Shown in pieces: positions 4,808 through 19,959 of a stretch of 64,000 bases of DNA (its first letter is position 1; each line of letters starts with the position of its first letter). The stretch is taken from the NCBI RefSeq assembly GCF_000215935.2, contig NZ_AFNU02000004.1, positions 186,001 through 250,000 on the forward strand, in the 5' to 3' direction. The notes beneath the pieces were generated by a model. That model searched no databases, had not been told where the DNA came from, and worked only from the letters and a program-made list of their open reading frames with translations. The position numbers were made by a program, and so were the translations under genes. The stretch is from Haloplasma contractile SSD-17B. Lineage in GTDB: Bacteria > Bacillota_I > Bacilli_A > Haloplasmatales > Haloplasmataceae.

Positions 4808-5596
4808 CTATAATGAATAATTAATAATTAATGATGGATCAAGTGTTCGATGTGTAAATGATTCAGTAATAAAAAGTCTTACTGTTTTAACATCACTTGA
4901 TTGAAAACCAATCGATAGATCTTTACCAATTGTCATCTCTAAATCTTCATGATCATATGGAACTAGTAAAGCTCCATCAACAACATGACTATATACAATG
5001 TCTGTTCCTGTTAAGTTTTCAATTCTATCCTTTAGAGGAACACCTTCTATTTTTTGATTAATTAGCTTCATTGCTTTATCCCCTACAATTAATGTATAGG
5101 GGGTGTCTACATAGTTCTTTTTAAGTCTTAGTATACCATCGGTAATTGCATCCATTATTGAAGACCCATCTTTTCCAAATTCGATTACTTGATTTTCAGA
5201 GTCATTAATTAAACCATTTATTCCTGCACCTTCAATTCCATTATAGAGTGCATTTTCTTCAAATAACGCAATCTCTTTGACAGCTTCCTCAAGAGGTTCA
5301 AGATTTACATCCTTAGCACCTCTTATAAGGTTATCAATCTCCCAACGATCTAAATCAAATTCAACTCTAGTTTCAACCAAAGGTTTAACTTTGTATAAAC
5401 CGTATCTAGTATCGTTATTATATTCCTTAACCTCATTTAACCGACCTTCTTCAACAACAGTATAATTCCAACCCTTTGGTCCGTCTACATGCAATACCCT
5501 TCTCGCAGATAAATAAGTATTCAAGACATCTTTTGCACGAGAATCAATTTCATTCCATTGCTCACTATTTAGTGGTGCAACATTTCGTTTTAACAT
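4808..5596 (-). CDS. encapsulin shell protein (type 1, linocin-M18-like)
   Basis: A 262-residue HK97-fold shell protein of encapsulin nanocompartments. The start LKRNVAPLNSEQWNEID and the segment ETRVEFDLDRWEIDNLIRGA are characteristic of type 1 encapsulins, as are the length and the C-terminal ESFTHRTLDPSLII. Many copies self-assemble into a hollow icosahedral particle that captures cargo through a C-terminal peptide. The gene directly upstream in the same direction, 30 bases away, encodes the ferritin-like cargo, so the pair should form an iron-storing compartment in the cytoplasm. Shine-Dalgarno AAGGAGGAATAAAG precedes the ATG. Confidence 0.93.
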   Translation of the reverse strand: MLKRNVAPLNSEQWNEIDSRAKDVLNTYLSARRVLHVDGPKGWNYTVVEEGRLNEVKEYNNDTRYGLYKVKPLVETRVEFDLDRWEIDNLIRGAKDVNLEPLEEAVKEIALFEENALYNGIEGAGINGLINDSENQVIEFGKDGSSIMDAITDGILRLKKNYVDTPYTLIVGDKAMKLINQKIEGVPLKDRIENLTGTDIVYSHVVDGALLVPYDHEDLEMTIGKDLSIGFQSSDVKTVRLFITESFTHRTLDPSLIINYSL

Positions 5597-5626
5597 AAAA
5601 CTTTATTCCTCCTTATAAATATTATC

Positions 5627-5953
5627 TTATTTCATATTTTTTAGATTACCAATATTCAAACTATCATTCTCATTTGTTTCATCTGTTTTATCCTCTTTAA
5701 AAAGATTTCGTCGCATCTCTTCGTCCCATCCTGGCATATTTTTTCGCAACCATTCTAACGCCATACATGCATGTTCAATCTCTTCATTTCGATTATGCTC
5801 AAGTATATGTTTCAAGTCTTCATCATTAGACGCAGCTATTCGTTGATGATACCAATTTACTGCCTCAACTTCTTCCATTAAACTTTTTAATGCCCTTACA
5901 CAATTAAGCGCATGCTCATCAAGTTTTTCAATTGGTTCATGATAATCATTCAT
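5627..5953 (-). CDS. encapsulated ferritin-like protein (EncFtn) with cargo-loading peptide
   Basis: A 108-residue two-helix protein. Glutamate- and histidine-rich segments LMEEVEAVNWYHQR (~26-39) and NRNEEIEHACMALEW (~55-69) supply the ExxH-type ligands used by EncFtn for its di-iron ferroxidase site, formed at a dimer interface. After an acidic linker, the C-terminus reads DSLNIGNLKNMK, an encapsulin targeting peptide (hydrophobic-Ile-Gly-x-Leu pattern). It is the first gene of the operon with the shell protein. Expected role: oxidise Fe(II) and store iron inside the encapsulin. No iron-responsive operator was recognised upstream. Confidence 0.92.
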   Translation of the reverse strand: MNDYHEPIEKLDEHALNCVRALKSLMEEVEAVNWYHQRIAASNDEDLKHILEHNRNEEIEHACMALEWLRKNMPGWDEEMRRNLFKEDKTDETNENDSLNIGNLKNMK

Positions 5954-6246: not shown

Positions 6247-6564
6247 ATGATGGAAACAATGATTAATACTTATAAAGATTTTTGGGTAAGATATGTAGAT
6301 TTTCAAGGCTTAAGTAGTAGACCTCAATATTGGTATGTTGTACTAATTAATTTCATACTTGGGCTTATAATAGCTTTTCTACCTGAAACTAATTCAAGCA
6401 TTTATGGTATAGCAACCTTCATTCCAGGTATAGCATTAACAGTTAAACGATTACATGATACTGATCGCAGTTGATGGATTATATTATGGGTGTTTCTACC
6501 AATAATCGGATTCATTGTACTAGTTGCATTCTTAGTTCAGCCTTCAAAAGCAACAATATATTAA
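6247..6564 (+). pseudogene. DUF805 membrane protein with an in-frame TGA codon
   Basis: The first 75 codons encode a DUF805-type membrane protein: an N-terminal YKDFWVRYVDFQGLSSRPQYWY segment, two hydrophobic helices, and the family signature KRLHDTDRS. A TGA (6472-6474) then interrupts the frame, but the same frame continues with a Trp and a hydrophobic helix (WIILWVFLPIIGFIVLVAFL) to a TAA at 6562-6564, giving the usual ~105-residue family length. In relatives the signature is followed by Gly-Trp-Trp, so the TGA replaces either a GGA Gly or a TGG Trp codon. Because UGA ends other genes here, this is a nonsense mutation or a readthrough site. A Shine-Dalgarno (AAGGGGAG) and a terminator flank it. 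Confidence 0.75.
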
Positions 6565-8717: not shown

Positions 8718-8734
8718 ATTTGTGATACGGTTCA
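8718..8734 (-). repeat. left attachment site (duplicate of the rlmH 3' end)
   Basis: Seventeen bases, ATTTGTGATACGGTTCA, identical to 19325-19341 inside rlmH. Read on the minus strand it encodes Glu-Pro-Tyr-His-Lys followed by TAA (8716-8718), the last residues of RlmH. No other rlmH sequence stands here, so this is an attachment-site copy and not a gene duplicate. Confidence 0.85.
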
Positions 8735-8791: not shown

Positions 8792-9499
8792 TTATTCGTA
8801 TTGATGATTATTTTTTATTTTATTAGCTTTTTTCCTAACATGACCATCTTTATCATTTAGTAAATCTCTAATAATATAAATAACAGATTCATCCCAATAA
8901 ATATCTATCAACTCTAAAGCCCATTCCCTGTGTCTGGCTAATTTACCTTTTGATAATATTTCAACAGCCTGCTTCCAATTATTTTCACATGCTCTTTGTC
9001 GTATAAACCAAGCCGCAACATCTTTTACTTGATTTGATTGATCATAAGAATATATATGTATTACTAACTGAAAATCATCTACTGATCCTACCTCGCAAAG
9101 ACATTCTACAGCTTCTTTCCTTACTTCTTCAATTAATGATTTTGTTAATTCTATAACTTTATTATATGCTTCTTTAATGCAATGAACTTTAATAGTTCTA
9201 AGAGTTGTAATAACTACATACTTTGATGTATCATCAAGTAGTTTAATTAACTCATTCTTTAACGAATATGCCATTTTATGATAGCTTAGTGCCTCAATTG
9301 CTAACCTTCTTTTACACCAATCTTTATCTAGTAAAACCTCTGATAATAGTTTTAAAGACTTTTCATCACCTTTATATCCTAGAGCAATACAAGCTACATT
9401 AAAATAGGCCATTTCCATATCCAACATTTTTTCTAATTCTAATATACTTTTATCACATGGGATTTTCACTCCATTAATAGATTCTGTCCTTTGATTCAT
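8792..9499 (-). CDS. HEAT-repeat protein, element cargo
   Basis: A 235-residue, all-helical protein made of HEAT-like repeats, for example LLDDTSKYVVITTLRTIKVH, LIEEVRKEAVECLCEVGS and LLNDKDGHVRKKANKI. No catalytic motif, signal peptide or membrane helix is seen. HEAT proteins are scaffolds for protein or nucleic acid partners. It follows the 251-residue gene by 44 bases in the same direction, which suggests an operon and possibly a functional pair. Function unknown. Confidence 0.75.
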   Translation of the reverse strand: MNQRTESINGVKIPCDKSILELEKMLDMEMAYFNVACIALGYKGDEKSLKLLSEVLLDKDWCKRRLAIEALSYHKMAYSLKNELIKLLDDTSKYVVITTLRTIKVHCIKEAYNKVIELTKSLIEEVRKEAVECLCEVGSVDDFQLVIHIYSYDQSNQVKDVAAWFIRQRACENNWKQAVEILSKGKLARHREWALELIDIYWDESVIYIIRDLLNDKDGHVRKKANKIKNNHQYE

Positions 9500-9543: not shown

Positions 9544-10299
9544 TTATTTAATTGTTCTATAGCTTAAACCTTCTGAAAAGTTATATTTTCCATTCATAAT
9601 ATCGTCTTTAGTTTGTTCATCAACTTTTATTCTTCTAGCAAAAAAATCTGATAACCATTTTATAGGTTCACTTACTTCACCTGTATATAAATCTATATCC
9701 TCTTCATGAAAATGGTTATGTACTCCATAATCATAGTAACCATTATCGCATATATAGCCAACATTATAGTAATTACTAAATGGCTTTATTTCCTTACTAG
9801 GACAAGCTGTTATGATATAAAGTTTCTTATTCTCTTTATTTTTATTATCTTTAACGATATCACCAATTTTAAATTTAGTGCCTGCATTTGCATTCAAATC
9901 ATCTGGCCTTATATCATAACTGCAATTATCATCAACATAGATATTTCTACTCAATAAATCACCTTGTAAGTTAAAATCCCAAACTATTTTAAAAGGATTT
10001 GATACTATACTTTCTTCATCTAAAGAAGTATAGTTATCATTAACATTAGGGTCTATCTCCTCTACTTCAAAAATAAAAGAAATACAATCTAATGTAAATT
10101 CTTTAAGTGAACACACATCTCTAAACTCATAGTTATTGTATAGATTTTTAATTTGATCTTGTAATGTTGTTTTTCCAGTACTTATAGCTAACTCTAAACT
10201 TGAAAATACCTCTGCTTTATATTCATATGGATCACACTTTGCATTAAAATTGTCATTAGTTTTATTAAATGCTACTGCTCGTAATAAAAATACTTTCAT
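9544..10299 (-). CDS. uncharacterised 251-residue protein, element cargo
   Basis: Not recognised. It is a soluble, acidic protein with no signal peptide or membrane helix. It starts MKVFLLRAVAFNKTNDNFNA. A middle part reads GTKFKIGDIVKDNKNKENKKLYIITACPS, which looks like a small beta-barrel (KOW/SH3-like) segment, followed by an aromatic stretch YICDNGYYDYGVHNHFHEEDIDLYTG. The C-terminus is helical. A Shine-Dalgarno (AAAGGAGGGCAA) supports the start. It is first in a two-gene unit with the HEAT protein and is divergent from the small RNA unit. Its function cannot be inferred. Confidence 0.75.
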   Translation of the reverse strand: MKVFLLRAVAFNKTNDNFNAKCDPYEYKAEVFSSLELAISTGKTTLQDQIKNLYNNYEFRDVCSLKEFTLDCISFIFEVEEIDPNVNDNYTSLDEESIVSNPFKIVWDFNLQGDLLSRNIYVDDNCSYDIRPDDLNANAGTKFKIGDIVKDNKNKENKKLYIITACPSKEIKPFSNYYNVGYICDNGYYDYGVHNHFHEEDIDLYTGEVSEPIKWLSDFFARRIKVDEQTKDDIMNGKYNFSEGLSYRTIK

Positions 10300-10379: not shown

Positions 10380-10408
10380 TTGCATACAAACTTAATAAAT
10401 ATTATAAT
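10380..10408 (+). promoter_or_regulatory. promoter of the structured small RNA
   Basis: TTGCAT (10380-10385) and a perfect TATAAT (10403-10408) are separated by exactly 17 bases. Transcription would begin about 6-7 bases later, at the first bases of the closing helix of the RNA. Confidence 0.65.
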
Positions 10409-10412
10409 ATAT

Positions 10413-10593
10413 TTGTGTAGTGCTAATATATCCTGTGCTTTCGCAGGTATACTCATAAAGTAAGCGATTTGTCGCTTGCGGGAGGAGCAACAACATAATT
10501 GTAGCTTGAAAATATTCAAGTCCACTAAATATGTATAGCACTACACAACCATATTTACTGATAATGCTGGTCGAATTTCGATCCAGCTTTTTT
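10413..10593 (+). ncRNA. candidate structured small RNA (~180 nt), family not recognised
   Basis: The 5' end TTGTGTAGTGCTA (10413-10425) is the perfect complement of 10536-10548, giving a 13-bp closing helix. Inside are three hairpins: CCTGTG/CGCAGG with a 4-base loop (10432-10447), AAGCGA/TCGCTT with a TTTG loop (10462-10477), and CTTGAA/TTCAAG with an AATA loop (10505-10520). A single-stranded purine-rich stretch GCGGGAGGAGCAAC follows the second hairpin. A rho-independent terminator (10566-10593) ends the unit and a near-consensus promoter begins it. No open frame of note lies inside. It does not show the hallmarks I know of 6S, SRP, tmRNA, RNase P or T-box RNAs. No reverse transcriptase is adjacent, so a retron is unlikely. 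Confidence 0.75.
10566..10593 (+). terminator. terminator of the small RNA unit
   Basis: GCTGG/CCAGC outer stem with an inner TCGA/TCGA stem and one bulged base, followed by six T (10588-10593). Confidence 0.85.
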
Positions 10594-10609: not shown

Positions 10610-10861
10610 TTAGGTTTGACTTATAAGAAAAATTGTTCCAGTACAACCAATTATATTAAAGATTATCCATGCAATTTCTCCAATATCATTTTGTATAATA
10701 AACCATATCAATGATGTTGGTATTGAAAATAACGATTTAGTTGCATGAATTAAATTATACTCAATAGTACCCACATCTAAACCTAGCAACAATAGCGAGC
10801 ATATATAAGGAACTAAATTAATAATAAAAAACATTAATGCTATTCCTAATAATTTTCTCAT
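10610..10861 (-). CDS. small membrane protein, element cargo
   Basis: An 83-residue hydrophobic protein with two or three membrane helices: LLGIALMFFIINLVPYICSLL near the N-terminus, SLFSIPTSLIWFII in the middle and IAWIIFNIIGCTGTIFLI at the C-terminus. No family was recognised. It converges on the small RNA unit: its stop codon lies 16 bases from the RNA terminator, and no T-run follows on its own strand, so its transcript probably runs antisense over the RNA. A Shine-Dalgarno (GGGGTGAAAG) precedes the ATG. Confidence 0.55.
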   Translation of the reverse strand: MRKLLGIALMFFIINLVPYICSLLLLGLDVGTIEYNLIHATKSLFSIPTSLIWFIIQNDIGEIAWIIFNIIGCTGTIFLISQT

Positions 10862-11150
10862 ATTCTTTCACCCCGAGTTTTATCCTTCATATCATATAAA
10901 CCTAATATTTATAAAATATACCAAACATATATATAAATTATAGCATAAAATACTAACTTATGAGATATAAATTCCCTATTATTATTCATTTTAACTTCCT
11001 TTAATGACTAATCTATAGTGGTTAAGATTTTATATATTTATGATTAATTTTACTTATCACATATTATATTTTATATTTATATTCAACCTATGGTTGAGTC
11101 ATGGTAACTTAACTTGTTATTGATTCATCCGTTACTTTAGCATAAAATAT

Positions 11151-13152: not shown

Positions 13153-14751
13153 CTAAGATTTTTTATATTCAAAAGTTTCACCTTGTGGAAAACTCGGATT
13201 TATTGATCTGTACAATATATCATCAAACTTTAAATCTATTTTCATATCTGCTTTAGATTTATCTATTATTTCAATTTTATCAACAATTAATCCTACAAGT
13301 TCTTTTACCTTTAATCGCTTATTTTCATTTTTAGTATTGAAGAGTATAGAAATATTTTTTAGAAAGGATTTTACATCATCAATTGTTATATCTAATTCTT
13401 CTCGATGTTTGATTTTAGTTTCAATATTTAATTCTTCGATACTTTGCTTATATTGATTAATCTCAGCAGCAATTGTCGCTAAATCTTCTTCAAGTTCTTT
13501 ATCAGTTATTAATTCTTTAATACTCAACTGTCTTAATTTTTGTTTTTTCTTCTCTAGTTCGTCTATTCTAATTTCAAGCCTTCTTAATTGTCCCTTATCT
13601 GAGTCCATATTTATCGTGTTATTTTTTATATATTCATATAAATTTTGAGTCAGTTCTTCTGAATTGAGGTCTTTAGCAATCTTCTTAAATGCTATTTTAT
13701 CGATTAAATCGACTCTAACACCATTTGAATGGCATGCAGTAACACCTTTATTATGAAATTGAGAACATGTATAGTAAAGATGTTCAATTCGCTTTCCTTC
13801 TTTATTCTTTCTTACTGACTTCGTTCCTACTACTTTAGAACCACATTCTGGACAACATAAAACTCCTGCTAAAATATACTTTCCAACAGGAGCTAATTTT
13901 CGCCTAGGATTATTTTTCATTTGTTCTTGCACTTTATCCCAGTCTTCTTTTGCAATAATTGCTTCATGCTCGCCTTCAACAAATATAGGATCTTCTGTTC
14001 TCCCTTTTCTTCTTTTAATATTCCAATCTTTATACTTTCCGTATTGAATGTATCCTGCATACAGTGGGTTAGACAATATAGTTTTAATTGTGTTAATTGC
14101 GAACAAGCTGTTTTTCTTAGTACGATAACCGTTCTTATTTAATCTATTTGCGATTGCTTTATAACCATGTCCACCTAAATACAAATTATAAATTTGTTGT
14201 ATTATCTGTTTCTCTTCTTCATTAACGACAATCTTTGTTTTTCGGCCACTATAATCACGATCATACCCCATAATAGGTCCAGAACCATAAATTTTTCCTT
14301 CTCTTGCTCTTCTTTCTGCACCTGTTCGTGTTTGTTCAATAATAAGGTTTCTTTCCATCTCTGCAAATATGCCCAAGAACTTTGCCATTGCTTCACCCAT
14401 TTGAAGAGATGTATCAATACCATCACCAATTGATTTAAACGTAACATTATTCTTCTTAAATTCATGTAATATGTTCTCAAGGTCTCGTGAATTTCTTGCT
14501 AATCTCGATATTTTTGTGACATATACTGCTTCTAAAATTCCTGCATCAACATCTTCTAACAATCTCTTTAGTTCCATACGGTCATCCGTGTTCTTACCTG
14601 ATATTCCACCATCTTTATATATAATATAATCTTTCTTTTCATAATTTGCTAAACCTATTAGTTTATCCTTTTGAGCTTCTAGTGAAAATCCTTCTTCTAC
14701 TTGTTTATCTGAACTTACTCGAATATATAATCCTATTTTCTTACTTTTCAT
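13153..14751 (-). CDS. large serine recombinase of the element (Ccr-like integrase/excisionase)
   Basis: A 532-residue large serine recombinase. The N-terminal resolvase domain (~1-150) has the nucleophile in IGLYIRVSSDKQ, then VEEGFSLEAQK, ISGKNTDDRMELKRLL and the catalytic-region ISRLARNSRDL. A recombinase domain follows (GYDRDYSGRKTKIVVNEEEKQII onward). The zinc ribbon is LCCPECGSKVVGTK with a second Cys pair at YTCSQ and ACHSNG, then a coiled coil (~380-450) and a C-terminal tail. It should catalyse integration and excision at the 17-bp rlmH sites. I chose the ATG at 14751 because AAAGGAG lies 9 bases upstream. The frame extends further upstream, but that part overlaps a small leader gene. 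Confidence 0.93.
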   Translation of the reverse strand: MKSKKIGLYIRVSSDKQVEEGFSLEAQKDKLIGLANYEKKDYIIYKDGGISGKNTDDRMELKRLLEDVDAGILEAVYVTKISRLARNSRDLENILHEFKKNNVTFKSIGDGIDTSLQMGEAMAKFLGIFAEMERNLIIEQTRTGAERRAREGKIYGSGPIMGYDRDYSGRKTKIVVNEEEKQIIQQIYNLYLGGHGYKAIANRLNKNGYRTKKNSLFAINTIKTILSNPLYAGYIQYGKYKDWNIKRRKGRTEDPIFVEGEHEAIIAKEDWDKVQEQMKNNPRRKLAPVGKYILAGVLCCPECGSKVVGTKSVRKNKEGKRIEHLYYTCSQFHNKGVTACHSNGVRVDLIDKIAFKKIAKDLNSEELTQNLYEYIKNNTINMDSDKGQLRRLEIRIDELEKKKQKLRQLSIKELITDKELEEDLATIAAEINQYKQSIEELNIETKIKHREELDITIDDVKSFLKNISILFNTKNENKRLKVKELVGLIVDKIEIIDKSKADMKIDLKFDDILYRSINPSFPQGETFEYKKS

Positions 14752-14845
14752 TGTTCTCTTCTCCTTTATTATCTTCATTAATTGACTCCAATAACAATTC
14801 ATATAATAACTCTAAAATTTTATTATCCTTATTTTTATTTACCAT
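14741..14845 (-). CDS. 34-residue leader protein overlapping the recombinase start
   Basis: A short frame starting ATG at 14845 behind TAGGTG (6-base spacing) and ending in TAA at 14741, 11 bases inside the recombinase gene. The product is small, acidic and helical (ILELLYELLLESINED). The overlap suggests translational coupling: the ribosome-binding site of the recombinase lies inside this frame. No known family. Confidence 0.5.
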   Translation of the reverse strand: MVNKNKDNKILELLYELLLESINEDNKGEENNEK

Positions 14846-14859
14846 TAGTTACACCTACC

Positions 14860-14891
14860 ATCATTAATTCGATAAATTTATCGTTAATGAT
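14860..14891. promoter_or_regulatory. palindrome upstream of the recombinase unit
   Basis: CGATAAATTTATCG (14870-14883) is a perfect 14-bp palindrome, extended by ATCATTAA and TTAATGAT arms with a 2-base bulge on one side. It lies 15-45 bases upstream of the leader gene and is a plausible operator controlling recombinase expression. Confidence 0.5.
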
Positions 14892-14946
14892 TTGTTAGTA
14901 GAATTTTATTAAAATAAAATCCTATCAACAATAAGTGCTCCAATAT

Positions 14947-14978
14947 AAAAAAAGAACCTAGATTTATTATCTAAGTTC
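14947..14978 (-). terminator. terminator after the accessory block
   Basis: On the minus strand GAACTTAGAT pairs with ATCTAGGTTC (one G-T pair) followed by seven T. It separates the accessory genes from the recombinase unit. Confidence 0.75.
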
Positions 14979-15042
14979 CTAGTTATTGAGCTATCGTAAA
15001 TGTGTAATATCAAATTAGAAATAAATAATTTATAATTTAACC

Positions 15043-15417
15043 CTATTTAATGAAGATCCTGCCGTATTTAAGCAAAGAATCCTCTCTGTAAGACCGTTTG
15101 GATGTTTTATATCCTAACGACATAAATATAAATTTTATAAAGCTACCTAAACATCTTTTATCATAAATACTGAGTTCCATATTTTTTATCTCATTACTAT
15201 AATATTCTATAAATGTATGAAGTGGCGCAATATTTAAATCTTGATTGAATATCATTAACTTTATTAATATATCATCTTGAATGGACCTTTTTACAAGATT
15301 CCATAATTCAGATCTATAATAATATTGTCCTAATACTGGTGATCTAGAACTTTCAATATTAAGACATACAATATCTTCTAGTAAATCCTTATCATAAACT
15401 ATTTTATTAAAATTCAT
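15043..15417 (-). CDS. uncharacterised element protein, paralogue of 18568-18975
   Basis: About 124 residues from the ATG at 15417, which has AGGAG at suitable spacing. The C-terminal two thirds resemble the protein at 18568-18975: (E)LWNLVKRSIQDDILIKLMIF matches LLNLWIEFLNDDDKVKMLFW, then LNIAPLHTFIEYYSNE matches LSIAPTHFFSKLYENE, and DKRCLGSFIKFIFM matches ERRCVGYLCSFLMQ, with a similar ending. No catalytic motif or known domain. Two diverged copies flank the accessory block, which suggests a duplication followed by specialisation. Confidence 0.65.
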   Translation of the reverse strand: MNFNKIVYDKDLLEDIVCLNIESSRSPVLGQYYYRSELWNLVKRSIQDDILIKLMIFNQDLNIAPLHTFIEYYSNEIKNMELSIYDKRCLGSFIKFIFMSLGYKTSKRSYREDSLLKYGRIFIK

Positions 15418-15567
15418 ATTCATTTCTCCTATTTTGATTATAATAAAAGCACACAAAATATACAGTATGCTTTGTTATAATAATCAAATCTTATTATATG
15501 ATTATATATAATTGAGTTGACTCTTTATATGTTATCAAAGTGATTATTCCACTTTGTTGTTTAATTA

Positions 15568-15828
15568 TTAATGTCTTATTAAGTATTTACCATTATTTAA
15601 TTCACTTATTTTTGAACTACTATTATTTTTGATATCCATGTACTCTGTTGTTGTTAATTCGGAGAATATTGAACATATTCCTATTACATCTAGTATTTCT
15701 ATTGTATTTATTTTTTTATTTAGTAATATATATATTTCCTTAAGAGCTTCATCACTAAATTGATTTTCTCTTGAGTATCTATGAAACTCATTCTTAAATT
15801 CATCATACTTCAATCTCTTAACAATCAT
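15568..15828 (-). CDS. small uncharacterised element protein (86 aa)
   Basis: Soluble, helical, no known domain. Its C-terminus (KISELNNGKYLIRH) resembles the end of the 148-residue protein at 16180-16626 (ETNQRVLVRHILNN), so the two may be distant relatives. A ribosome-binding site (AAAGGTATGATAGGG) precedes the ATG. Confidence 0.5.
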   Translation of the reverse strand: MIVKRLKYDEFKNEFHRYSRENQFSDEALKEIYILLNKKINTIEILDVIGICSIFSELTTTEYMDIKNNSSSKISELNNGKYLIRH

Positions 15829-15879
15829 TCCCTATCATACCTTTCATATGATTATTTTATAGTCTTAGTAAGTTTAAAT

Positions 15880-16125
15880 GGCGGGGGCCTAAGACCACCA
15901 ACGCCCCGCCTTCGTTGTTCGAGCATTTCTCAGCTCTATGAATTTATTTATTAGTATAAATAAAGTGGTCTTTAGTGTTAGTGTTAGGAAAGTCCCATCA
16001 ATTTGATAACCTATAGAGGGTAAGTTTCCTATCCTCGTATTACCTCACTGACTCAATTATCATTATTTATAATTGATCACTTAACATCCGCTGAACTGGA
16101 AGCAACTTCTCGCACCAGAACTTAT
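15880..16125 (-). ncRNA. structured, locally GC-rich intergenic segment with a possible pseudoknot
   Basis: In a strongly AT-rich region, GGCGGGG (15880-15886) pairs with CCCCGCC (15904-15910). The loop of that hairpin holds CTAAGACCAC (15889-15898), complementary to GTGGTCTTTAG (15965-15975) with one bulge, which would form a pseudoknot. Further pairs: TAGGAAA (15985-15991) with TTTCCTA (16025-16031), CCC with GGG inside it, a GAGC/GCTC hairpin, and CTGG...GAAG/CTTC...CCAG (16095-16117). No open frame of note. Same-strand neighbours suggest a minus-strand RNA, but I see no clear promoter. A DNA-level site such as a transfer origin is the alternative. Confidence 0.5.
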
Positions 16126-16179
16126 TTAATTATTTGTTGTTAACATTTTATTTTATTAAACTATATCCATCTAACTGAA

Positions 16180-16626
16180 TCAGTTATTGAGAATATGTCT
16201 TACTAGAACACGTTGATTTGTTTCTGTCGTAAAGGCTACGCTATCATTATCAATTGTTGCTATATTAATTTTTTTATTTAACATATCTAAGTTTGTATAT
16301 TCATTGTATAATACAATATTGATTAACCTAATAAATCCATTGTGCCCTAATTCATCATATAAATAACAGTAATACAAATGGTCATATGATATATTAGTTT
16401 CAGCTATTAACCATACTGCAAACTTAACATAATCTCTAAACTCATATACATCATGTTGTAAATCTTGAATAGGTTGAATACTATTAAAGATTGTTTCATC
16501 ATAGCCCATTTCAGCAACAATGTTAAACACTTCATCCATTCGAGTTATTATTTCAGGACTAAATACATATTTATTTTGAATCGCTTGTAACTCTTTGGTG
16601 TAAATGTTCTGTAACATTTTAATCAT
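16180..16626 (-). CDS. uncharacterised element protein (148 aa)
   Basis: A mostly helical soluble protein beginning MIKMLQNIYTKELQAIQNKY. No domain recognised. It follows ssb by 36 bases in the same orientation, so it belongs to the accessory operon. An ATG nine bases in (MLQNIY) is a possible alternative start. Confidence 0.65.
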   Translation of the reverse strand: MIKMLQNIYTKELQAIQNKYVFSPEIITRMDEVFNIVAEMGYDETIFNSIQPIQDLQHDVYEFRDYVKFAVWLIAETNISYDHLYYCYLYDELGHNGFIRLINIVLYNEYTNLDMLNKKINIATIDNDSVAFTTETNQRVLVRHILNN

Positions 16627-16662
16627 AATTTACCTCGCTTCCTAACCAATAGTAAGTAGGAA

Positions 16663-17001
16663 CTACCAAGTTTCTGATTGTTTACTTGCAGAAATAAAGG
16701 TTATTTTCTCTCCTAGTATTTCAGGAACATAGATAATCCCTTCATCTGTTTCTTTCGTTACCGAACAAATTCTCGCTTTAACCCCCACTGTTACACCTGC
16801 TTTTAAATGATCATATGCTGTTGAAGTAATCCCCTCTGATAAATCAACAGTCACAAAATCACTATCATACTGCATTGTATCAGGATTTTTAAAACCTCTT
16901 TTGATTTCTAATGTTAACCTTGTTTTCATTTTATTATTATCTAACACTTCCTTAACTGGATTGCCTATTATTTTTCCAACAAGTATTGTTTGGTTTAACA
17001 T
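16663..17001 (-). CDS. ssb: single-stranded DNA-binding protein (short, element-borne)
   Basis: A 112-residue OB-fold SSB. The start LNQTILVGKIIGNPVKEV corresponds to the (x)NxVxLVGRL.xDPE opening of bacterial SSBs, followed by KTRLTLEIKRGF and the aromatic/beta segment FVTVDLSEG. It lacks the long acidic C-terminal tail that chromosomal SSBs use to recruit partners, which is common for plasmid- and element-borne copies. It would bind single-stranded DNA exposed during transfer, replication or repair of the element. It abuts the upstream basic protein without a gap. Confidence 0.85.
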   Translation of the reverse strand: MLNQTILVGKIIGNPVKEVLDNNKMKTRLTLEIKRGFKNPDTMQYDSDFVTVDLSEGITSTAYDHLKAGVTVGVKARICSVTKETDEGIIYVPEILGEKITFISASKQSETW

Positions 17002-17292
17002 CTACTTCTTCCTCCTTTTATCGTAATAGTTATGGTTATTGGTTCTTTGATTTATGTTATCAAAGTTATATGTGAAATTATCATTATTAAAGTCAACCAC
17101 ATTGACGCTCTCCGTAACAATGACAACCTTATCTCTACTATACGTTTCAGTTCTTCTTGTCGCATTCGTCAGATTATTTTGATATCCCTTTTGATATCGT
17201 CCTCTATTCGTTGCAGCGACAGGTCTTGCAATACTGTTATCAGAACGGTGATTACTGTATCTCTTTGTAGGATAATACTTTTGATTAGCCAA
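17002..17292 (-). CDS. small basic, Asn/Arg-rich protein (96 aa)
   Basis: Rich in Asn, Arg, Tyr and Lys, of low complexity and likely disordered (NRGRYQKGYQNNLTNATRRT; NINQRTNNHNYYDKRRKK at the C-terminus). The composition suggests nucleic acid binding. It is directly adjacent to ssb (stop next to start) and preceded by AGGAGGTGAAAAG. No known family. Confidence 0.6.
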   Translation of the reverse strand: MANQKYYPTKRYSNHRSDNSIARPVAATNRGRYQKGYQNNLTNATRRTETYSRDKVVIVTESVNVVDFNNDNFTYNFDNINQRTNNHNYYDKRRKK

Positions 17293-17355
17293 CTTTTCAC
17301 CTCCTACTTATAATTCAAGATTTATTCTAATTTCCCATTTATTATATTTATACGA

Positions 17356-17832
17356 TTAACTAAGATACTTTTCTTCTCTCATACTTAAATACTTCACATC
17401 TAATTCATCGTATTGGTTACCTATGATGATGTGATCGAGAAGCTCTATACCAATTACTTCACCAACTTCACTAAGTCTTTTAGTAACACTTATATCTTGT
17501 TGACTTGGCCGAACATCTCCACTTGGATGATTATGGGCTACTATAATGCTTGCAGAAGATGATAACAATGCAAAGTTAAACACTTCTCTCGGATGTACAA
17601 CTGATTTATTAAGTGAACCAACAAAGGCTGTTTTGACTGCGATTATTTTGTTCTTAGTATCTAAGCAAATAACAATCAAGTGTTCCTGCATCTCACCTTG
17701 TAGATCGAATAACTCGTAAATCAACTTTGCGATTTTATCTGGTGCTGTCACTTGAAAATCATCGTCAACTTTATAATTCATACCATTTTCTTTTACTAAC
17801 ACCATTTTGGTTTTATAATAATTAATACGCAT
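17356..17832 (-). CDS. radC: RadC-type JAB/MPN domain protein (short form)
   Basis: A 158-residue protein containing the complete JAMM metal motif HNHPSGDVRPSQQD (His-x-His-x7-Ser-x2-Asp) and the preceding segments IIAVKTAFVGSLNKSVVHPREVF. It lacks the N-terminal helix-hairpin-helix domain of chromosomal RadC, which is the usual form on mobile elements. The family is often linked to DNA processing or anti-restriction, but its enzymatic activity is not firmly established. Its start codon abuts the stop of the upstream 94-residue gene, so both are co-translated. Confidence 0.88.
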   Translation of the reverse strand: MRINYYKTKMVLVKENGMNYKVDDDFQVTAPDKIAKLIYELFDLQGEMQEHLIVICLDTKNKIIAVKTAFVGSLNKSVVHPREVFNFALLSSSASIIVAHNHPSGDVRPSQQDISVTKRLSEVGEVIGIELLDHIIIGNQYDELDVKYLSMREEKYLS

Positions 17833-18117
17833 TTAATACCACTCTCCTACTCCATGGTAATCAGAAAACAATGTCTCATAATTAAAATCATCTATACTAA
17901 CACCATCTTCAATTAGGTCAGTTATGTATTCTCTAGCACTTTGTGCGACTCCAATTAGCGTTGCATAATCTTTTTTCATATAAACGGAGATACTTAAATT
18001 AATAACACGTAAGATGTTCTCGTCATTTATGTTAGTTAACAAATCTTCTAATTCTCGATAGATGATACTTTTAGATAAAAGTTCGTGTTGTGATAATTGT
18101 TTTATAACAGTTAACAT
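17833..18117 (-). CDS. uncharacterised element protein (94 aa)
   Basis: A helical, acidic soluble protein (MLTVIKQLSQHELLSKSIIYRE...) with no recognised domain. It is placed directly before radC with no gap and belongs to the accessory operon. Confidence 0.6.
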   Translation of the reverse strand: MLTVIKQLSQHELLSKSIIYRELEDLLTNINDENILRVINLSISVYMKKDYATLIGVAQSAREYITDLIEDGVSIDDFNYETLFSDYHGVGEWY

Positions 18118-18187
18118 TCTCTATCACCTACCACAATATTACTTCTTTATTACTAACAAGATCTTTAACAACTTGAATTTCATTAAT

Positions 18188-18505
18188 CTATGAATCTGCG
18201 TCTTTTATGCTGATACCTAACGTTTCGCCTTCCTCATCACATGGCCCCATAATTAACACATTACCGTATAGATACTGATTGGTATCATTAAGTAACATTG
18301 TTAGTTGTGGTTCTGCTTTTAATAGTCCTTCATCATCAATATAGATTGATTTGTCTCTATAACTAACAATGTCAATTAGGTTTACACCTAGATGTTTATA
18401 GATTTGATGCAATTCTGACATATTACTGTTCTTATTAATTTCAACAACACTGATAGCTAATGATTGTTGGTCTTCTGTTCTTTTTATTAAAATTCCTTTT
18501 TTCAT
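18188..18505 (-). CDS. DUF3846-like protein
   Basis: A 105-residue protein with the arrangement I associate with DUF3846: a central IVSYRDKSIYIDDEGLL segment followed by YGNVLIMGPCDEEGETLGIS. DUF3846 proteins are small and frequent on phages, plasmids and conjugative elements, with no known function. A strong ribosome-binding site (TTGGAAGGAGATTAAG) precedes the ATG. Confidence 0.65.
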   Translation of the reverse strand: MKKGILIKRTEDQQSLAISVVEINKNSNMSELHQIYKHLGVNLIDIVSYRDKSIYIDDEGLLKAEPQLTMLLNDTNQYLYGNVLIMGPCDEEGETLGISIKDADS

Positions 18506-18567
18506 CTTAATCTCCTTCCAAAATAAAAAGCCTATCTTTACGATAGACTAAAATAATCTTTACGATT

Positions 18568-18975
18568 TTAAACAAATACTTGTCCATGTTTGATTTTAAA
18601 TACAGAATTAGCAACTCTTACACCCTTAATAAATTTCTTATCCTTTTCCTGTAGCAGTCGACATTGCATTAAGAAGCTACAAAGATAACCGACACATCTT
18701 CTCTCAAATACAATTGCAGTTGCTAACTCATTTTCGTATAGTTTACTAAAGAAATGTGTTGGAGCGATACTTAATTCATCGTTATTCCAAAACAGCATCT
18801 TCACTTTATCATCATCATTCAAGAACTCAATCCATAGATTTAACAGCCAATGATGATCACCTTTATCTTGTTTATCATACAAACATTTGCTTGGACTATT
18901 TGATTTTAAATACATACTCCAAAAGTTATCTCTTAACAGGTCCATATCATAACGATACTTATTAAATAAATTCAT
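18568..18975 (-). CDS. uncharacterised element protein, paralogue of 15043-15417
   Basis: About 135 residues from the ATG at 18975, placed 9 bases after AAAGGAGG. The extended frame would start with TTG at 18984. Shared blocks with the second copy are LLNLWIEFLNDDDKVKMLFW, LSIAPTHFFSKLYENE, ERRCVGYLCSFLMQ and the ending FKIKHGQVFV. No domain recognised. It is the first gene of the accessory operon, next to the rlmH end of the element. Confidence 0.65.
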   Translation of the reverse strand: MNLFNKYRYDMDLLRDNFWSMYLKSNSPSKCLYDKQDKGDHHWLLNLWIEFLNDDDKVKMLFWNNDELSIAPTHFFSKLYENELATAIVFERRCVGYLCSFLMQCRLLQEKDKKFIKGVRVANSVFKIKHGQVFV

Positions 18976-19085
18976 ATCTTTCAACCTCCTTTAATCTTCT
19001 CCTGTTAACATTTTTATAATATGTATTTAAAACATCTGCAAAATCGGATTTAAATCTTAATTATACATTGTCGTGTTAATGAAAC

Positions 19086-19099
19086 ATGTTTTAAAACAT
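19086..19099. promoter_or_regulatory. 14-bp palindrome upstream of the accessory operon
   Basis: ATGTTTTAAAACAT, about 110 bases upstream of the first accessory gene. It is a plausible operator. No protein can be assigned. Confidence 0.35.
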
Positions 19100-19198
19100 T
19101 TCTAATAAGGTTTCAGTAGTCATGTTATAAATATACACCTTGACTCAAAGAACAGTTAGAATACATTGCAAATCGCTTTAAATAATGTAAATACACAA

Positions 19199-19229
19199 AA
19201 AGGAGAAGTGAATATAATCACCTCTCCTT
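19199..19229 (-). terminator. terminator inside the element, downstream of rlmH
   Basis: On the minus strand AAGGAGAGGTGA pairs with TCACTTCTCCTT around a short loop, followed by TTTTTG. It ends the rlmH transcript about 95 bases after the rlmH stop and shields the element's genes from read-through. Confidence 0.75.
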
Positions 19230-19322
19230 GTATTATTATATTTTTCTAAACGACTATTTTTACGGTATTTGATTACAAAATATTTAAAAATTGAAATACA
19301 AATAATTACGCTTTGTTTTAGG

Positions 19323-19802
19323 TCATTTGTGATACGGTTCATTATTATTTATTTTAATAGCTCTGTAGATTTGTTCTAATAAGATTAAACGCATTACCTG
19401 ATGGGGGAATGTCATTTTAGAAAAAGATAAGAGTTCATCTGAACGTTTATAGACTTTTTCACTTAAGCCTAGAGATCCCCCTATAATGAAAGTTATTTTA
19501 GACTTACCATATGTCAACAAGTTATTTAAGTCCATAGCTAGTCTTTCACTACTTTTTTGTTTTCCTTCAATCGCAAGTGAGATTACATATTCGTCCCTTT
19601 TTATATGATTAAGAATTTTTTCTCCCTCTGCATCTTTGACTATTCCCATTTCCTTGTCACTTAACTTCTCAGGTGCTTTTTCATCTTGTAATTCTATAAT
19701 GTTAAACTTACCATAAGGTGTTAATCGTTTCAGATATTCATTTATTCCTTGTTTAAGATATTTTTCTTTGAGTTTGCCTACTGTAATTAATTTAACCTTC
19801 AA
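19323..19802 (-). CDS. rlmH: 23S rRNA (pseudouridine1915-N3)-methyltransferase RlmH
   Basis: A SPOUT-family methyltransferase. Visible are the start [19 protein letters not shown], the SAM-binding knot segment [24 protein letters not shown] in shorter parts ([20 protein letters not shown]), and the ending [14 protein letters not shown]. It methylates pseudouridine 1915 in helix 69 of 23S rRNA. I choose the TTG at 19802: it lies 4 bases after AGGTGA and gives 159 residues, the length of the Bacillus and Staphylococcus proteins. Its last codons are the integration site of the element, which restores the coding end and replaces the original TAA by TGA. Confidence 0.95.
19325..19341 (-). repeat. 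right attachment site inside the rlmH 3' end
   Basis: ATTTGTGATACGGTTCA, identical to 8718-8734. It encodes the last residues of RlmH (Glu-Pro-Tyr-His-Lys) and the first base of the TGA stop. Confidence 0.85.
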
Positions 19803-19959
19803 AATCATCACCTGATTTCACTATATAACGTGATAGTTGATCGCACAATTCACATCTATGACTCTGCTCTGTTTCTTCTACAATAGGTAGTTTATTTAAA
19901 TCCAGTACTTTTTCAATTCCTATATCTGTATGTTCTTCACACACAAAAACCTTATACAT
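19792..19959 (-). CDS. CxxH/CxxC zinc-ribbon-like small protein
   Basis: A 55-residue protein beginning [20 protein letters not shown] and containing CEEH and CELC pairs, a presumptive zinc site. It matches the small CxxH/CxxC protein family found beside rlmH in Bacillus. Its 3' end overlaps the rlmH start by 11 bases, so the two are likely translationally coupled. Function unknown. Confidence 0.75.

What the first reader, a model, noticed from the sequence alone, without database searches (positions are those of the whole stretch)
10380..10593. Self-contained structured small RNA unit inside the element
Promoter (TTGCAT-17-TATAAT), a 13-bp perfect closing helix formed by the transcript ends, three clean hairpins, a purine-rich single-stranded stretch and a rho-independent terminator form one unit of ~180 nt. 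I cannot match it to a known family. Its location among cargo genes (251-residue protein and HEAT protein on one side, membrane protein on the other) suggests a function for the element such as regulation, immunity or toxin control.
Basis: partly seen in the sequence, partly recalled or inferred. Interest (0 to 1): 0.75.

Follow-up and report, generated by a model that had tools for sequence, protein, structure and literature searches.

The report
Orphan structured RNA in cassette element
A mobile DNA cassette in a Gram-positive bacterium carries what looks like a real gene for a folded, non-coding RNA of about 180 bases; no relative was found anywhere searched, so its function is unproven and its most likely role, antisense control of its neighbours, is an inference.

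Summary
At 10413-10593 (+) lies a compact unit: a -10 box next to a 13-bp perfect closing helix, three hairpins, a GGGAGGAG stretch and an intrinsic terminator. It folds far better than shuffles (z -6.9) and is the most structured 180-nt stretch of the window. All three non-Watson-Crick positions in its helices are G-U on the + strand and A-C on the other, which fits an RNA read from +. Corrections: the -35 is poor (3 of 6), and the closing helix ends before the terminator. The unit is cargo of a 10.6-kb SCC-like cassette at rlmH: CcrB-like recombinase plus a 17-bp direct repeat of the rlmH 3' end. It has no Rfam match, occurs once in its genome, and no relative was found in samples of up to about 395 related genomes, phages, plasmids or three other elements sharing the core genes. 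Covariation therefore could not be tested. Best guess: a stand-alone antisense RNA lying opposite the gap between a small membrane-protein gene and a 251-residue protein gene, restraining read-through mRNA, as RatA and SR4 do in type I toxin-antitoxin pairs. It is not a member of those families. Real RNA gene: about 0.75; this mechanism: about 0.3.

The parts
10380..10408 (+). putative sigma-70-type promoter: TTGCAT (3/6 of consensus), 17 nt, TATAAT (6/6)
   Evidence: sequence; not listed by consensus scan; unique in window
10413..10593 (+). structured RNA unit, about 180 nt, from near the expected start of transcription to the end of the terminator
   Evidence: fold z -6.9; G+C-corrected -5.1 sd, best of window
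10413..10425 (+). 5' arm of 13-bp closing helix UUGUGUAGUGCUA
10428..10450 (+). hairpin 1 (loop CUUU; one G-U pair 10436-10443)
10460..10479 (+). hairpin 2 (loop UUUG; one G-U pair 10461-10478), enclosed by CUC/GAG 10452-10454/10485-10487
10480..10487 (+). purine-rich stretch GGGAGGAG, mostly exposed
   Evidence: pairing probabilities
10504..10521 (+). hairpin 3 (loop AAUA; one G-U pair 10504-10521)
10536..10548 (+). 3' arm of closing helix UAGCACUACACAA
10566..10593 (+). intrinsic terminator (stem with one-base bulge, then TTTTTT)
9544..10299 (-). orphan 251-aa protein gene, divergent from the RNA
   Evidence: no Pfam/NCBIfam/PHROG/PADLOC match; no relatives
8792..9499 (-). HEAT-repeat protein gene downstream of the 251-aa gene
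   Evidence: Pfam HEAT_2 7.8e-16
10610..10861 (-). 83-aa hydrophobic protein gene, convergent with the RNA; stop codon 16 nt beyond the RNA's T-run
   Evidence: no family; hydrophobicity; no relatives beyond two weak matches
13153..14802 (-). CcrB/CcrC-like large serine recombinase of the element
   Evidence: NCBIfam SCCmet_CcrB 2.6e-98, below the equivalog cut-off
8718..8734 (-). left attachment-site repeat TGAACCGTATCACAAAT
   Evidence: exact copy of the rlmH 3' end
19325..19341 (-). right attachment-site repeat inside the rlmH 3' end

Best explanation
An SCC-like cassette inserted at rlmH carries, among its variable cargo, a stand-alone gene for a non-coding RNA of about 180 nt transcribed from the + strand. 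Inferred mechanism: it is a cis-antisense RNA. Its whole length lies opposite the gap between the gene of an 83-aa membrane protein and the gene of the 251-aa protein, and no intrinsic terminator separates these two on the minus strand. Minus-strand mRNA reading through the gap would therefore carry the full complement of the RNA. The folded RNA would pair with it, starting at exposed loops and the GGGAGGAG stretch, and mark it for RNase III or block its processing, keeping the cargo proteins low. Shown: the structure, the strand bias of its pairs, the position, the element, and the absence of a recognisable minus-strand terminator. Inferred: transcription, read-through, pairing and repression.
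For: Fold z -6.9 and -6.4, no shuffle as good; most structured 180-nt stretch of the window after G+C correction. The three helix positions that are not Watson-Crick are all G-U on + and A-C on -; the same set of pairs scores -47.6 kcal/mol on + and -37.6 on -. A perfect -10 box ends 4 nt before the helix, and an intrinsic terminator follows on the same strand. No convincing hairpin-plus-T-run terminator on the minus strand between 10615 and 9500. Convergent arrangement with a small hydrophobic protein gene in a mobile element, as in txpA/ratA and bsrG/SR4 (PMC4147584; PMC3531473).
Against: No transcript data. No homologue, hence no covariation. The -35 is weak. The RNA does not overlap either neighbouring coding sequence, so the mechanism needs read-through. 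The 251-aa gene may have its own promoter (10371-10342). The polarity argument rests on three pairs (1 in 8 by chance), and minus-strand RNA refolds to nearly the same energy. The 83-aa protein matches no toxin family and is longer than the 59-aa TxpA.
Confidence: 0.3

Rival explanations
1. A trans-acting regulatory RNA of the cassette: the exposed GGGAGGAG and adjoining CAACAACAUAAUUGU pair with CU-rich stretches of host mRNAs or soak up C-rich host small RNAs.
For: Autonomous promoter/terminator layout; the purine-rich stretch is largely unpaired in the ensemble.
Against: Duplex scores with translation start regions of 50 window genes show no outlier among the element's own genes; the best are ordinary host genes within about 3 sd of the mean. 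Genome-wide target search was not possible.
Confidence: 0.27
2. A structural or guide-like RNA that works in a complex with a cargo protein (for example the divergent 251-aa protein and its HEAT-repeat neighbour), perhaps in defence or immunity.
For: Compact branched fold with three arms on one closing helix; back-to-back with the 251-aa gene; HEAT protein has weak similarity to defence-linked HEAT models.
Against: No reverse transcriptase, nuclease or known defence family in the cargo proteins scanned; the 251-aa protein is an orphan and its single-sequence model is unusable, pLDDT 34.
Confidence: 0.13
3. Antitoxin RNA of a true type I toxin-antitoxin pair with the 83-aa membrane protein as toxin.
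For: Convergent genes, small hydrophobic product, mobile element, structured RNA with terminator.
Against: No Rfam antitoxin match even at E up to 10; no toxin family match; predicted ends do not overlap; the protein has at least two hydrophobic segments.
Confidence: 0.12
4. A DNA-level feature: a small transposon-like repeat with 13-bp terminal inverted repeats, an origin or a protein-binding site, with no RNA function.
For: Perfect terminal inverted repeats; both strands fold well.
Against: Single copy, and nothing else in the genome shares the ends; all three imperfections are G-T in one orientation; terminator and -10 box fitted to the same strand.
Confidence: 0.13

Closest known systems
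RatA antitoxin RNA of txpA/ratA (Bacillus subtilis skin element)
   Same: Structured RNA with its own promoter and terminator, convergent with a small membrane-protein gene, in a mobile element; proposed action through overlap with the 3' part of the mRNA.
   Different: No sequence or covariance match; the 83-aa protein is unrelated by family searches and longer; overlap of the transcripts is only presumed here, about 75-120 nt there (PMC4147584, PMC3531473).
SR4 antitoxin RNA of bsrG/SR4 (SPbeta prophage)
   Same: Convergent antisense layout, mobile element.
   Different: Same points as for RatA; no family match.
Cassette chromosome elements: SCCmec and Enterococcus cassette chromosome (the carrier, not the RNA)
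   Same: Insertion in the 3' end of rlmH, Ccr-type large serine recombinase, direct repeats; reported central att motif TATCATAA (PMC6222049), here TATCACAA.
   Different: A different bacterial family; recombinase below the NCBIfam equivalog cut-off (330 vs 900 bits); a small 10.6-kb element with its own core genes (SSB, RadC, small proteins), also seen in three other genomes.

Membership tests
Any Rfam 15 family | Covariance-model score at or above the gathering score | tested here: not met
   Only T-box leaders elsewhere in the window; at E up to 10 only YenS on the wrong strand, 17.9 vs 80 bits, and mir-133
Type I antitoxin RNA (RatA, SR4 and similar) | Match to a known antitoxin RNA family | tested here: not met
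Type I antitoxin RNA (RatA, SR4 and similar) | Convergent or antisense to a gene for a small hydrophobic protein | tested here: met
   83-aa hydrophobic protein gene, convergent, 10610-10861
Type I antitoxin RNA (RatA, SR4 and similar) | Transcripts overlap | tested here: inconclusive
   Coding sequence ends 16 nt beyond the RNA; no minus-strand terminator found, so overlap is possible
Type I antitoxin RNA (RatA, SR4 and similar) | Protein toxic unless the RNA is present | not testable with these tools
   needs experiment
Retron non-coding RNA | Reverse transcriptase encoded next to it | tested here: not met
   No such family among the ten element and flanking proteins scanned
Transposon remnant with terminal inverted repeats | Ends shared with other copies or with a transposase gene in the genome | tested here: not met
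   only its own two arms match
SCC-like cassette (carrier) | Ccr-type serine recombinase | tested here: met
   CcrB 2.6e-98 and CcrC 2.3e-90, both below equivalog cut-offs
SCC-like cassette (carrier) | Insertion at the rlmH 3' end with direct repeats | tested here: met
   17-bp exact repeat at 8718-8734 and 19325-19341

The most novel reading that the evidence does not exclude
The RNA is the founding member of an undescribed class of cassette-borne RNA that works as a complex with the orphan 251-aa and HEAT-repeat proteins, forming a new RNA-protein defence or immunity module carried by SCC-like elements.
Probability: 0.08. Interest if true: 0.75.

Novelty: new member of a known kind. Interest (0 to 1): 0.35.

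Why it matters
If real, it adds a discrete structured RNA gene to the cargo of SCC-like cassettes outside staphylococci and enterococci, and gives a concrete, easily tested unit: one northern blot and one deletion. As an orphan without covariation it cannot yet support a new class.

Tried and rejected
DNA searches in phages and plasmids gave only A+T-rich chance pieces. DNA matches in two small genomes fall inside a thymidylate-kinase-like gene and lack the helix. The exact closing-helix pattern in viral contigs hit an unrelated sequence without the structure. The exact core GCGGGAGGAGCAACAA gave 21 viral contigs, none with the structure; the best model score (15.3 bits) lies far from the pattern inside a 1001-aa gene. 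A covariance model from the one sequence found nothing in 395 class and 392 phylum genomes (stricter filters) and nothing convincing in other ccr elements with filters off. Relatives of the 251-aa protein: none. The recombinase scans of contig collections failed because the tool chose non-conserved peptides. Small ORFs inside the unit (20-27 aa on +, 49-56 aa on -) were considered; I saw no ribosome site at a fitting distance. A literature search for small RNAs in SCC elements gave nothing relevant. tRNA/tmRNA: none.

Full report
What is there. TATAAT at 10403-10408 is followed at 10413 by UUGUGUAGUGCUA, which pairs perfectly with UAGCACUACACAA at 10536-10548. Inside lie three hairpins (10428-10450, 10460-10479, 10504-10521) and the exposed GGGAGGAG at 10480-10487. 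A terminator stem at 10566-10587 ends in six T. The -35 TTGCAT agrees with the consensus at only three of six positions, and the promoter scan did not list it. Promoter-like matches are no more frequent in the region than in shuffles (37 against 33), so the promoter is plausible, not shown. The motif TTG-N19-21-TATAAT occurs nine times on the two strands of 64 kb; having one end a few bases before the helix is unlikely to be chance, though this was judged after the fact.

Is it more than chance? Yes. The energy is -61.8 kcal/mol against -36.6 +/- 3.65 for shuffles, z -6.9; without the terminator z is -6.4. A scan of the window in 180-nt stretches on both strands, corrected for G+C, puts the exact unit at -5.1 sd; the best stretch elsewhere is -3.9. 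The unit was placed exactly while the scan moved in steps of 20, which favours it somewhat; the nearest scanned stretch (10381) still ranks among the top four places at -3.8. The inverted repeat alone is weaker evidence: four perfect 13-mers with comparable spacing exist in the window, with 0.6 expected.

Which strand? A perfect inverted repeat folds on both strands, and the minus strand has z -6.0. Three facts point to plus: the -10 box, the T-run, and the helix imperfections. All three helix positions that are not Watson-Crick in DNA (10436-10443, 10461-10478, 10504-10521) are G-U as plus-strand RNA and A-C as minus-strand RNA. The same pair set scores -47.6 on plus and -37.6 on minus. By chance three of three would point to plus in one case of eight. 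The pattern also speaks modestly against a pure DNA feature.

Where is it? rlmH is at 19323-19811 (-). A 17-bp exact copy of its 3' end, TGAACCGTATCACAAAT, lies at 8718-8734. Between the copies is a large serine recombinase matching CcrB (2.6e-98) and CcrC (2.3e-90), below the curated equivalog cut-offs. This is the layout of SCC-like cassettes; Enterococcus examples with an att core TATCATAA are described in PMC6222049, and here the core reads TATCACAA. Genes for a 105-aa protein, a 96-aa protein, SSB, a 137-aa protein, RadC and the recombinase are shared, wholly or in part, by elements in three other genomes. The RNA is not in that core; it sits in the variable cargo between the 251-aa gene and the 83-aa gene.

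Relatives. There is no Rfam match. It is a single copy in its own genome. No relative was found by DNA search in 149 relatives or 392 phylum genomes (two chance matches inside one gene), nor by a single-sequence covariance model in 395 and 392 genomes, nor in the shared-core elements with filters off (best 13 bits against 177 for itself), nor in phages and plasmids. Single-sequence models reach only moderate divergence and the genome samples are thin, so this is weak evidence of real absence.

Function. The neighbours give few clues. The 251-aa protein has no family or relative and folded poorly from one sequence. The next protein has HEAT repeats. The 83-aa protein is hydrophobic, without family and with at most two weak distant matches. 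There is no convincing minus-strand intrinsic terminator between the 83-aa gene and the 251-aa gene. A minus-strand transcript that continues would thus be complementary to the whole RNA. In Gram-positive type I toxin-antitoxin loci, convergent RNAs overlapping the 3' part of the mRNA act in this way; RatA chiefly by inducing RNase III decay of txpA mRNA (PMC4147584; PMC3531473). I therefore judge cis-antisense control of the neighbouring cargo the likeliest mechanism, at 0.3, with a trans-acting regulator close behind. It works like RatA on paper; it is not filed as a member, because a family match was tested and not met and toxicity and overlap are untested. Target prediction for the exposed stretch against window genes gave no outlier.

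Verdict. A good candidate for a real, orphan, element-borne structured RNA gene (about 0.75), ordinary in kind, with unproven function.

Noticed in passing
window 14790-14960 (-); L034 about 15080-15260, L026 about 17870-18050, L032 about 17150-17330: Upstream of ccr, a conserved block shared by four elements: a terminator hairpin, an inverted repeat CCATTAACGATA..TATCGAATTAATGATGG (partly lost in two of them), and a conserved small ORF that runs up to the ccr start. The window copy folds with z -5.8. Possibly a control region or recombination-linked site of this cassette family.
   Followed up: partly
window 13153-19300; L026, L032, L034: A distinct SCC-like core (105-aa, 96-aa, SSB, 137-aa, RadC-like proteins plus Ccr) occurs wholly or in part in elements of three other genomes of the class; two of those ccr frames contain in-frame stops.
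   Followed up: partly
window 10862-10985 (-): A small hydrophobic ORF with an in-frame TAA (MNNNREFISHKLVFYAIIYIYVWYIL*ILGLYDMKDKTRGERI) runs up to the 83-aa gene and overlaps its start by ATGA.
   Followed up: no
window about 6250-6562 (+): A DUF805-like reading frame interrupted by an in-frame TGA (by eye).
   Followed up: no
window 4808-5953 (-): By eye, an encapsulin-like protein gene next to a small ferritin-like cargo protein gene.
   Followed up: no
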